A stretch of 64,000 nucleotides of DNA from Verrucomicrobiota bacterium (GTDB lineage Bacteria; Verrucomicrobiota; Verrucomicrobiia; Verrucomicrobiales; Akkermansiaceae). Position numbers and translations under genes: made by a program. Positions within the stretch are counted from its first letter, which is position 1. Every line of letters begins with the position of its first letter. Below the pieces are notes generated by a model. It did no database searches and was not told where the DNA came from. It saw nothing but the letters and a program-made list of their open reading frames with translations. Below, in pieces: positions 2,796 to 5,585 of this stretch. Location: positions 1 through 64,000 of the forward strand of contig JAFLEH010000015.1 of assembly GCA_017301995.1 (NCBI GenBank). The letters are read 5' to 3'.

Positions 2796-2920
2796 ACCGA
2801 ACAAGTCGAGACACAGCAACCCCTATCAGCCGCCCTGTTCACATGATTTTCTGTAGTTTCAACCCTAACCTTGTGATCGACGCTCGCTCCCGCTGATAGG
2901 GGTGCGTGCTCTTTGACGTT
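2796..2920 (+). other. attC site 3, 5' part, interrupted by a group II intron
   Basis: The R'' box is ACCGAAC (2796-2802). Arms ACCCCTATCAG (2819-2829) and CTGATAGGGGT (2893-2903) form a perfect 11-bp stem. The site stops at GTT (2918-2920) and resumes as CGGC at 4066-4069 after the intron. The restored R' box GTTCGGC is the exact complement of GCCGAAC at the far end of cassette 4 (4572), as cassette biology predicts. Confidence 0.8.
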
Positions 2921-3095
2921 GTGCGCCGAGCCAAGCAAGGCGCTTCTTATATGGTGAAAGACCAAATATGACAAAACCTAGCCAGTAGTCATTACCGAGT
3001 GTTGCAGTTATGTTAGCTAACCCATTGGAATTTCGCGGGAGGCACCGCGTGAACAACATGAACCCGGAGGCTGCCTTGGAGGCCGATGGATGGGG

Positions 3096-3248
3096 AACCG
3101 GAGCGAAGCGGAGATAGCCCGCCTGACCTCCTTCCAATCTGCGGGCAACCGGAGCGAAGCGGAGATAGCCCGCCTGACCTCCTTCCAATCTGCGGGCAAC
3201 CGGAGCGAAGCGGAGATAGCCCGCCTGACCTCCTTCCAATCTGCGGGC
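3096..3248 (+). repeat. Three exact tandem copies of a 51-bp unit
   Basis: Copies at 3096-3146, 3147-3197 and 3198-3248 are identical as read, each beginning AACCGGAGCGAAGCGGAGAT. They lie within the domain I region of the group II intron. There are no spacers, so this is not a CRISPR array. The exact identity suggests recent expansion. Confidence 0.95.
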
Positions 3249-3452
3249 AAACAGCATGATTGAAGCGTACACAGGGAACGCGCATTCGTTTGTGACGAAA
3301 TTTCTTCAATCCCCCGGCGGCGGAGCCGGGGGCTAACTGGCATGGCGTGAGCGGAGCGAGCGCAATCACATAGGCCACAGGGCGGTTCGCACCCGCCCGA
3401 AGACTAATGCAGCCCCGTAAGAGTGACGTGTGGAAGGAGATCCAGTAACGTT

Positions 3453-4046
3453 ATGGAGAACCCAGCAATGAATGGCGCGAAATGGCAAGTGCCACAGATT
3501 CCACCGGGGTCGTCACAGGTCGTGGCATGTGTGAAGAGAAGCGAAAAGATGAACCGATTTTCCACAGTCGGCACCTTGAACTCGGGAGGCCCGGAATGTG
3601 CCCCTTCGGCTGCCGCAAGGTGGCCGGAGGCCATTGGCGATCGACCCAAAGAAGACGCCAGTCGGACATTCGGGGAGTCAGATCCATCCATAGTAGTCAG
3701 AGACGGTAGCGCCGGTCACACGGCTTCGCATCGCTTCGCCGGCGCGAGCACGGCTTCGCATCGCTTCGCCGGTGCGAGCACGGCTTCGCATCGCTTCGCC
3801 GGCGGGAGCACGGCTTCGCATCGCTACGCCGGTGCGAGCACGGCGAAGGGGTGGGCAGGAAGCAACGCAAGCACAGGTATCACCTCGGGACACGAATACT
3901 CCCGCTCGAACGGTGTCAAACTCCCTGCTTGCAATGGGGACCGGTTCTGGCACTCTGTGCCTGAGCCGGTTCCACGTGCGCGCGATCCTGAGGAGCCCGG
4001 TGCGGTAATTCCGCACGCCGGGATCTGCGAGGGGGGCACCGGGTAA
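3453..4046 (+). pseudogene. Possible remnant of the group II intron-encoded protein leader
   Basis: An open frame begins at ATG 3453 in the place where intron-encoded proteins start, just after the domain I-III region. Only an N-terminal leader-like stretch is present. It runs straight into the 30-bp tandem repeats and then into the sequence forming domains IV-VI. None of the reverse-transcriptase motifs (for example YADD) or maturase helices can be found. I read it as the stub left after internal deletion of the ORF. It is unlikely to make a functional protein. Confidence 0.3.
3721..3840 (+). repeat. Four tandem copies of a 30-bp unit
   Basis: Units start at 3721, 3751, 3781 and 3811, each CGGCTTCGCATCGCT followed by TCGCC or ACGCC and ending GAGCA. 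They differ at only a few positions. They sit where the reverse-transcriptase ORF of the intron would be expected and may mark the deletion junction. Confidence 0.95.
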
Positions 4047-4096
4047 CCGGTGTCCCTACCTCAATCGGCAGAGACCCCCACGCAACATCAACTAAC

Positions 4097-4673: not shown

Positions 4674-5105
4674 ATGGAACGAGAAATCACAGATGGAGAT
4701 CACAAGATAGGACCAAGTCCGACGGTGCGCTTAGTTCGCACAATTGCGATATTTTCTATTTTGGGACTGGTGCTCGTTACCGGGTGGATGCCCGATGCCA
4801 ATTTGATGACAAAAAGCTTGGTATTCGGTGGTGTATTGGCCATCGGCATTGTGGCTTGGACCTATTTAGAGGCACGCAATATTGTGATCCGCCGCAGTCA
4901 GGTGAGTCGTTCTTCTTGGTGGAGAATAGCCGCCCTGAGTCTTCATCCAGTCATGATTCCCATATACCTGATCGTTCTGCCGATCATCGTATTTCTTACT
5001 GTTGCCTGGATCAATCATAACCACGCCGAACAAGCCGTCGCTCCGAACCGCTCATTGCCGTCTTCACAGAATTCAACGTCCTCTGTTCGCGGATCGGAGG
5101 ACTAA
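4674..5105 (+). CDS. Cassette 5: three-helix membrane protein of unknown function
   Basis: 143 residues from the ATG at 4674, 5 bp after the attC4 core. An in-frame TTG at 4656 lies inside attC4 and is rejected. Three hydrophobic segments are visible: I-A-I-F-S-I-L-G-L-V-L-V, then L-V-F-G-G-V-L-A-I-G-I-V-A-W, then I-P-I-Y-L-I-V-L-P-I-I-V-F-L. The last two are linked by a basic loop, so a small inner-membrane protein is likely. The hydrophilic C-terminal tail of about 27 residues is encoded by the attC site itself (from 5025), so its sequence is set by recombination-site constraint. No family recognised. Confidence 0.7.
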   Translation: MEREITDGDHKIGPSPTVRLVRTIAIFSILGLVLVTGWMPDANLMTKSLVFGGVLAIGIVAWTYLEARNIVIRRSQVSRSSWWRIAALSLHPVMIPIYLIVLPIIVFLTVAWINHNHAEQAVAPNRSLPSSQNSTSSVRGSED

Positions 5106-5115
5106 AACGTTGGGC
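5025..5115 (+). other. attC site 5, overlapping the end of the cassette 5 gene
   Basis: 91 bp from GCCGAAC (5025-5031) to GTTGGGC (5109-5115). The second box fits the canonical GTTRRRY exactly. The coding frame of cassette 5 continues through most of the site to TAA 5103-5105. Confidence 0.75.
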
Positions 5116-5140: not shown

Positions 5141-5542
5141 ATGAAGACAACCGCCAAGTTCTTGCTTGTTCTGGCCGTTCTTACGGCAATGTGCGCCATC
5201 ATTTGGGAGTTCACTTTGCCGGGGGGCGTCTACGATTGCACAGATGAGGTTGGCTTCGACTATCTGAGTCCAGGCGATTGGGTGCATGGACCTATCGAGT
5301 ATGTTGAAAAGATCGATACCATGCGAGGAATGGAGTTGCCCGACACCCTGAAGCGAGGTTGGACGATTACAGGACTATGGGGCATCTGGTGGTTCATGTT
5401 CGGATCGTCGATCATTATAGCGGGTTTTGCATCGCGTATCAGTTGGGGAGCAGTTGCCGGCACATCACAAGATCGAAACCACACCGACACAGAACCGCCC
5501 AACAAGCCGTGGGATGCAACCGGCGATAACGTCCGTTCTTGA
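5141..5542 (+). CDS. Cassette 6: two-helix membrane protein of unknown function
   Basis: 133 residues from the ATG at 5141. An N-terminal hydrophobic segment (F-L-L-V-L-A-V-L-T-A-M-C-A-I-I-W) may be a signal anchor. A second helix (W-W-F-M-F-G-S-S-I-I-I-A-G-F-A) follows an acidic, probably periplasmic domain of about 65 residues. The C-terminal tail is polar and runs into attC6. No catalytic motif is visible. Like its neighbours it is a single-gene cassette on the + strand. Confidence 0.7.
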   Translation: MKTTAKFLLVLAVLTAMCAIIWEFTLPGGVYDCTDEVGFDYLSPGDWVHGPIEYVEKIDTMRGMELPDTLKRGWTITGLWGIWWFMFGSSIIIAGFASRISWGAVAGTSQDRNHTDTEPPNKPWDATGDNVRS

Positions 5543-5585
5543 ATTCGGGCTCGCCACCGCCGGTGCATCCACATCAACGTTCGAA
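5497..5585 (+). other. attC site 6, overlapping the end of the cassette 6 gene
   Basis: 89 bp from GCCCAAC (5497-5503), a perfect RYYYAAC box, to GTTCGAA (5579-5585). The first box is the exact complement of GTTGGGC, which begins this cassette at 5109, as expected for a cassette that once closed into a circle. Confidence 0.75.

What the first reader, a model, noticed from the sequence alone, without database searches (positions are those of the whole stretch)
2918..4069. Group II intron splitting an attC core exactly between GTT and CGGC
Intron ends GTGCG and AAT, and domain V/VI near 3993-4060, are seen directly. Removing 2921-4065 restores GTTCGGC, which is the exact complement of GCCGAAC closing the same cassette, so both intron ends are set by independent evidence. 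Known attC-targeting introns are group IIC. The domain V here (GAGCCCGG with a GTAAT loop region) looks more like another class, which would be a different targeting solution.
Basis: partly seen in the sequence, partly recalled or inferred. Interest (0 to 1): 0.75.

Follow-up and report, generated by a model that had tools for sequence, protein, structure and literature searches.

The report
Non-IIC intron family in integron attC
A self-splicing (group II) intron of a class not usually found at integrons sits exactly inside an integron recombination site of an Akkermansiaceae bacterium; it belongs to a multi-copy family, some members stripped of their own enzyme, that targets these sites on the opposite strand from the known integron introns.

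Summary
Window 2921-4065 (+) is a group II intron inserted between GTT (2918-2920) and CGGC (4066-4069) of an attC R' box. Four further copies in the same genome have both ends and two have one end. Paralogous empty attC sites in the same genome read straight through GTT|CGGC. The intron is not IIC. Its RNA matches Rfam RF02005, as does a class E intron (S.me.I4), whereas IIC-attC introns from class 1 integrons match RF02001/RF01998. Intact relatives encode a ~430-aa maturase-RT in a clade that includes class E and excludes class C. EBS1 (3447-3452) pairs with the attC core; EBS1-IBS1 covary over 25 introns (137/150 pairs; shuffles 99.7 +/- 5.3). This pairing favours the top-strand R' site (AACGTT) over the bottom-strand site (CTTGTT) that resembles the IIC-attC target, so the intron runs with the cassettes. 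The window copy lacks an ORF, and no complete RT was found in its genome. Its RT deletion looks shared by copies in several other genomes. Precedents exist: class E fragments in a CALIN and one IIC intron in an attC top strand (PMC7923331). I call it a new variant of a known kind. Splicing and mobility were not tested.

The parts
2796..2920 (+). attC site of the upstream cassette, from R'' (ACCGAAC 2796-2802) through stem 2819-2830/2892-2903 to the first 3 nt of R' (GTT 2918-2920)
   Evidence: Perfect 12-bp stem; member of a repeated attC family in this genome and in 32 of the other relatives searched; empty paralogues; top-strand fold z = -2.41
2921..4065 (+). ORF-less group II intron (RF02005 type), GTGCG...CAAT
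   Evidence: Rfam hits; same-ended copies elsewhere in the genome; related sequence in 26 of 59 genomes searched
3092..3250 (+). Three 51-nt tandem repeats inside domain I, part of an insertion of about 240 nt not present in the IEP-bearing relatives
   Evidence: family D2; relatives join query 177 to 444 over about 26 nt
3407..3513 (+). 3' part of the conserved D1-D4 core
   Evidence: RF02005 positions 111-219/225, 52.2 bits
3447..3452 (+). EBS1 (AACGTT), pairs with IBS1 GACGTT (2915-2920)
   Evidence: Covariation with IBS1 over 25 introns, 137/150 pairs against 99.7 +/- 5.3 in shuffles, 0 of 10000
3719..3850 (+). Four 30-nt tandem repeats in domain IV, just before the relic of the IEP N-terminal region
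   Evidence: family D1
3839..3968 (+). Remnant of domain IV and the IEP N-terminal region carrying the RT deletion junction also seen in other ORF-less copies
   Evidence: 15 of 88 3' ends tested run through the junction unbroken, in loci of G000, G018, G028, G029, G051 and G016
3993..4025 (+). Domain V with AGC triad
   Evidence: RF00029 alignment; near-identical DV in the family
4026..4065 (+). Domain VI; candidate branch-point A at 4058, 8th from the 3' end; 3' splice site after 4065
   Evidence: RF00029 1-77/77; family alignment; branch point inferred by analogy
4066..4069 (+). Remainder of the R' box (CGGC); +1 C is the likely IBS3
   Evidence: Empty paralogue on C25 reads GTT|CGGC; +1 is C in 38 of 42 3' exons of the family
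5027..5111 (+). Empty attC homologous (88%) to the intron-filled attC on contig C64; followed by GGGC
5498..5581 (+). Empty attC homologous (76%) to the intron-filled attC on contig C21; followed by CGAA

Best explanation
The feature is an ORF-less member of a group II intron lineage (RF02005, class-E-like, IIB-type; not IIC) whose target is the top strand of integron attC sites. Shown by sequence: exact insertion after GTT of R' without duplication or loss; EBS1 (AACGUU) pairing with the six bases that end in the attC core; preference for C at +1; same orientation as the cassettes; relatives with a maturase-RT ORF. Inferred: the RNA is transcribed with the cassette array and splices out. With an IEP made in trans, or formerly in cis, it reverse-splices into attC top-strand DNA exposed as single strand, presumably at replication since class E IEPs lack an endonuclease. 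Six EBS1-IBS1 pairs plus the attC hairpin would stand in for an IBS2 pairing. Strand choice would follow from EBS1: in this genome's attC sites the top-strand R' core mostly reads (A/G)ACGTT, the mirrored bottom-strand core reads CTTGTT. The window copy kept the segments found in intact relatives, lost its RT, and is probably orphaned today, because no complete RT was found in its genome.
For: Intron and ends. Empty paralogous sites. Intact relatives with IEP in cis and the same ends. Class: RF02005 shared with the class E intron on pRmeGR4b (L212) and with Klebsiella and Acidithiobacillus introns, while IIC and IIC-attC references give RF02001/RF01998 and RmInt1 (class D) gives RF01999. IEP tree: 29-row clade 99/100, class C including IIC-attC 100/100 apart; class E reference inside the wider RF02005 clade, SH-aLRT 98. 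EBS1-IBS1 covariation including AACGTT/AACGTT, ACTGTT/AACAGT and ACGATC/GATCGT. Top versus bottom: 5-6 against 4-5 pairs. Opposite orientation of IIC-attC introns in class 1 integrons. No RVT_1 match, only an IEP fragment (aa 330-430) on C56.
Against: No expression, splicing or mobility data. Domain I of the window copy carries a repeat-filled insertion that could impair folding. Some family members sit behind hairpins that are not attC (IBS1 ACTGTT: L055, L083, L089, L097), and only 19 of 40 junctions have an AACAA R'' motif upstream against 22 of 150 controls, so attC is a main but not the only target of the clade. An RT could be hidden in assembly gaps, as contigs often end in cassette arrays.
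Confidence: 0.82

Rival explanations
1. It is an ordinary IIC-attC intron, as known from class 1 integrons.
For: Inserted in attC; no IBS2-like conservation at -12 to -7; hairpin upstream; relatives' IEPs are short, as in class C.
Against: Wrong RNA family, wrong IEP clade, AGC triad rather than CGC, opposite strand and the other box of attC (R' top instead of R'' bottom), IBS1 AACGTT instead of the TTGTT core.
Confidence: 0.03
2. The window copy is a dead relic: a former class-E-like intron that lost its RT, gained repeats and neither splices nor moves.
For: No complete RT in the genome; repeat arrays inside D1 and D4; three 429-nt copies lack EBS1, D2 and D3 altogether; many copies in related genomes are fragments or contig-end pieces.
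Against: The segments shared with IEP-bearing relatives are present in the window copy and in C21, D5-D6 is nearly invariant in the family, EBS1-IBS1 still pairs 6/6, and C21 is 97% identical at both ends at a different attC.
Confidence: 0.45
3. The copies in this genome spread mainly as passengers of cassettes, moved by the integron integrase, rather than by retrohoming. The crossover G^TT lies 2 nt before the intron, so the intron is the 5' end of the downstream cassette and GTT-GTGC serves as its R' box.
For: GTTGTGC is the R' box of natural empty attC sites on C65 and C19 of this genome and in relatives. L085, L088 and L090 have EBS1 AACAGT but sit behind (A/G)CGTT with only 4/6 pairs. Copies with the same internal deletion occur at different attC sites.
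Against: The copies in G000 have different downstream cassettes, so no intron-plus-cassette block has been seen moved. EBS1-IBS1 pairing is near perfect in most copies, which fits retrohoming.
Confidence: 0.25

Closest known systems
Group IIC-attC introns (S.ma.I2 and others; references here L159, blaIMP-4 integron, and L160, arr-2 integron)
   Same: Group II introns that insert into integron attC sites next to the attC hairpin, with short exon pairing and En-minus IEPs.
   Different: IIC RNA (RF02001/RF01998) and class C IEP; bottom strand at R'' (TTGT/T, PMC7923331), opposite to the cassettes. Here RF02005, class-E-like IEP, top strand at R', same orientation.
Class E introns H.ha.F1/F2 in the Halorhodospira halochloris CALIN and CL1 intron UHB.I2 (PMC7923331)
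   Same: IIB-type introns in cassette arrays; UHB.I2 lies just after an attC in cassette orientation, and H.ha.F1/F2 have attC or attC-like structures upstream.
   Different: Those are two 5'-truncated fragments and one intron with divergent ends (UUGCG...GU) and no conserved exon. Here there are many copies with both ends, empty sites, EBS1-IBS1 covariation and an ORF-less group.
IIC intron in an attC top strand of an Enterobacter cloacae integron (cited in PMC7923331, ref. 31)
   Same: Top-strand attC insertion in cassette orientation.
   Different: Single case, group IIC.
ORF-less bacterial group II introns (reviewed in PMC4424553; C.te.I1 has no related IEP in its genome)
   Same: No IEP; here too no complete IEP was found in the host genome.
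   Different: Here the ORF-less form is multi-copy, its RT deletion junction appears in several genomes, and it is integron-associated.

Membership tests
Group II intron | Conserved D1-D4 core and D5/D6, GUGYG...AY ends | tested here: met
   RF02005 52.2 bits above gathering; RF00029 full-length 36.1 bits (just below gathering 40; 39.9 for C21); ends GTGCG...CAAT
Group II intron | Self-splicing or maturase-aided splicing | not testable with these tools
   Needs RNA
Group IIC-attC | IIC RNA and class C IEP lineage | tested here: not met
   RF02005 instead of RF02001/RF01998; IEP relatives outside class C, which is 100/100; DV triad AGC
Group IIC-attC | Insertion in the attC bottom strand at R'', opposite to the cassettes | tested here: not met
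   Top strand at R', same orientation
Bacterial class E / RF02005 lineage | RNA family shared with a published class E intron | tested here: met
   L212 on pRmeGR4b, which carries the disrupted class E intron S.me.I4 (PMC5894124), matches RF02005 at 145 bits. Identification of L212 as S.me.I4 rests on its plasmid and its distance from RmInt1.
Bacterial class E / RF02005 lineage | IEP inside class E | tested here: inconclusive
   IEPs of relatives form a clade (SH-aLRT 100) beside the group with the class E reference, both within a node of 98; only one class E reference and no class F/g reference by name. The window copy has no IEP.
attC site (integron) | R'' and R' boxes with a hairpin between, repeated in a cassette array, integrase in the genome | tested here: met
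   Boxes and stem, repeated family, integron-integrase fragment at the end of contig C13, below the family cut-off and cut by the contig end
ORF-less group II intron | No IEP in D4 | tested here: met
   No RT in the window copy; no RVT_1 match in the genome; only an IEP fragment on C56

The most novel reading that the evidence does not exclude
A hybrid mobile system: class-E-like introns enter attC top strands by reverse splicing, and because their first bases GTGC rebuild a working R' box (GTTGTGC) the intron becomes the spliceable leader of the downstream cassette and is then shuffled by the integron integrase. An RT-less version spreads through a bacterial order as a non-autonomous, SINE-like element.
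Probability: 0.25. Interest if true: 0.8.

Novelty: new variant of a known kind. Interest (0 to 1): 0.52.

Why it matters
The 2015 review of group II introns holds that homing is used by all lineages but class C and places attC targeting within class C (PMC4424553). This family gives a replicated second case in another class, with a simple, testable rule for strand choice (EBS1 AACGTT against the CTTGTT core). It also provides an ORF-less intron group apparently shared across genomes, a form described as rare in bacteria, and suggests how an intron could ride on gene cassettes without harming them.

Tried and rejected
A home-made attC finder based on R''/R' and stem scores found 37 sites on the first 12 kb but 16-38 in shuffles, so it was dropped in favour of homology to known attC copies. 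The stem-score comparison of junctions and controls was weak (p = 0.04), because controls came from the same arrays. Covariance models and structure prediction were not needed. Class assignment by PDB matches alone is indecisive. Whole-genome download was not available. The search for the downstream cassette without intron in relatives found only attC-level matches and one diverged gene copy.

Full report
What is there. The window is the first 64 kb of contig C7 of a 7.04-Mb, 65-contig genome. Its nearest named relatives are Akkermansiaceae and Verrucomicrobiaceae. At 2796-2920 lies an attC site (R'' ACCGAAC; perfect 12-bp stem 2819-2830/2892-2903) whose R' box is interrupted after GTT by 1145 bp that begin GTGCG and end CAAT. 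Rfam places D1-D4 (RF02005) at 3407-3513 and D5-D6 (RF00029) at 3991-4065. The second score is 36.1 bits, below the curated 40; copy C21 scores 39.9.

Ends. A search of the whole genome returns C21 (near full length), C64 and two on C2 (429 nt, lacking intron bases 189-917), C65 (5' end only) and C56 (3' end with an IEP fragment). Every end that is present matches intron base 1 or base 1145. The 5' exons all end ACGTT or GACGTC; the 3' exons all begin CG. Paralogous attC sites without intron exist for four of the five intron-bearing attC types in the same genome: GTT|CGGC and GTT|CGGA on C25 for the window type; GTT|AGCC, CGGC, CTGC and ATCC for the C2 type; window 5027-5111 (GTT|GGGC) for C64; window 5498-5581 (GTT|CGAA) for C21; none was found for C65. 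Insertion is exact, without duplication or loss.

Family. Related sequence occurs in 26 of 59 genomes searched, up to other families of the order. Intact copies are about 2.0-2.2 kb and carry a maturase-RT of about 430 aa without a recognised endonuclease domain. More distant relatives lie in Planctomycetota, Desulfonema, Thiocystis and Methylococcaceae.

Class. The reference set was built from records with external identity. L159 and L160 are introns inside class 1 integrons, running against the cassettes. L162 (Streptococcus agalactiae) and the GsI-IIC RT were used as further class C references. L156 is taken as RmInt1, because its copies on the GR4 plasmids fit those listed in PMC5894124. 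L212 is the other group II RT on pRmeGR4b, which carries the disrupted class E intron S.me.I4 (PMC5894124). RNA families: class C including IIC-attC gives RF02001/RF01998, RmInt1 gives RF01999, and the class E reference, Klebsiella, Acidithiobacillus, Sorangium and the Verrucomicrobial introns give RF02005. The IEP tree separates class C (100/100) from the clade with the relatives of this intron (99/100), and the class E reference falls in the wider RF02005 clade. The intron is therefore not IIC; 'class-E-like' is the best name, with formal class membership left open.

Targeting. In 30 distinct 5' exons of the Verrucomicrobial group information is concentrated at -4 to -1 (C/T G T T) and is low at -12 to -7; +1 is C in 38 of 42 3' exons, against roughly half of the empty attC sites listed (my count). 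The loop at 3447-3452 (AACGTT) pairs with the 5' exon. Over 25 introns EBS1 and IBS1 covary, including AACAGT with ACTGTT and GATCGT with ACGATC: 137 of 150 pairs, shuffles 99.7 +/- 5.3, none of 10000 as high. The 25 pairs were read off by eye; L092, whose EBS1 could not be read, was left out. In 18 attC sites of this genome the top-strand R' core offers 5-6 pairs to AACGTT, and the mirrored bottom-strand core, CTTGTT in 17 of 18, offers 4-5. The known IIC-attC target is TTGT/T in the bottom strand (PMC7923331). Thus one short pairing can explain why this family takes the opposite strand. A role for the hairpin is likely but not proven: the attC top strand folds, and relatives with another EBS1 sit behind hairpins that are not attC, but junction stems exceed controls only weakly.

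ORF-less copies. The window copy and C21 keep the segments shared with IEP-bearing relatives but have lost the RT. Fifteen of 88 3' ends tested, in loci of six genomes, run through the same deletion junction. The shared junction is clear for W, C21, C64 and the G018, G028 and G029 copies, and weaker (73-77% identity) for the C2 and G051 copies. G000, G018 and G028 yielded no complete IEP. This suggests spread after loss of the RT, either in trans or with cassettes. The 429-nt copies are unexplained, since they lack EBS1, D2 and D3 yet sit at different attC sites.

A further possibility. The intron's first bases turn R' into GTTGTGC, which is also the R' box of natural empty attC sites on C65 and C19. 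Because the integrase crossover is G^TT, the intron is formally the first part of the downstream cassette. Three introns whose EBS1 fits ACTGTT sit behind (A/G)CGTT, as expected if cassettes carried them there, though relaxed pairing would also do. No moved intron-cassette block was found, so this stays a hypothesis.

Known and new. PMC7923331 already reported CL1 and class E introns in integron arrays and cites a IIC intron in an attC top strand; PMC4424553 states that homing is the specificity of all lineages but class C and that ORF-less introns are rare in bacteria. New here, as far as the held literature shows, are the replicated family, the empty sites, the pairing rule with strand choice, and the ORF-less group. 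Splicing, mobility and any effect on cassette expression are untested.

Noticed in passing
L055, L083, L089, L097, L037 (5' junctions): Relatives with EBS1 AACAGT sit after ..CTGTT behind hairpins without an attC R'' box: a second target type in the same clade, possibly terminators.
   Followed up: partly
window 3092-3250; G000 C13:3350, C5:116893, C24:10987, C1:324819, C15:75063: The repeat inside domain I shares a core of about 31 nt with sequences dispersed elsewhere in the genome (91-97% identity): a REP-like element that has entered the intron.
   Followed up: no
G000 C64:125154-125582, C2:60244-60672, C2:65001-65429: 429-nt mini-introns with the same internal deletion of EBS1, D2 and D3, at two attC types and before three different cassettes; how they spread is unexplained.
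   Followed up: partly
G000 C13 end (L166), C25:82745-83599: C-terminal part of an integron integrase cut by the contig end, and an IntI-like ORF of 348 aa beside attC sites.
   Followed up: partly
L098, L099 (Desulfonema, Planctomycetota): Relatives outside Verrucomicrobiota insert one base further, after GTTA, with EBS1 shifted to TAACGT or TAACGG to match; L099 has an attC-like R'' upstream.
   Followed up: partly
window 3993-4025 and family: Domain V in RF02005-type introns reads GAGC...GAUC, so the G of the AGC triad faces A instead of the usual U (G-A in place of the G-U wobble).
   Followed up: no
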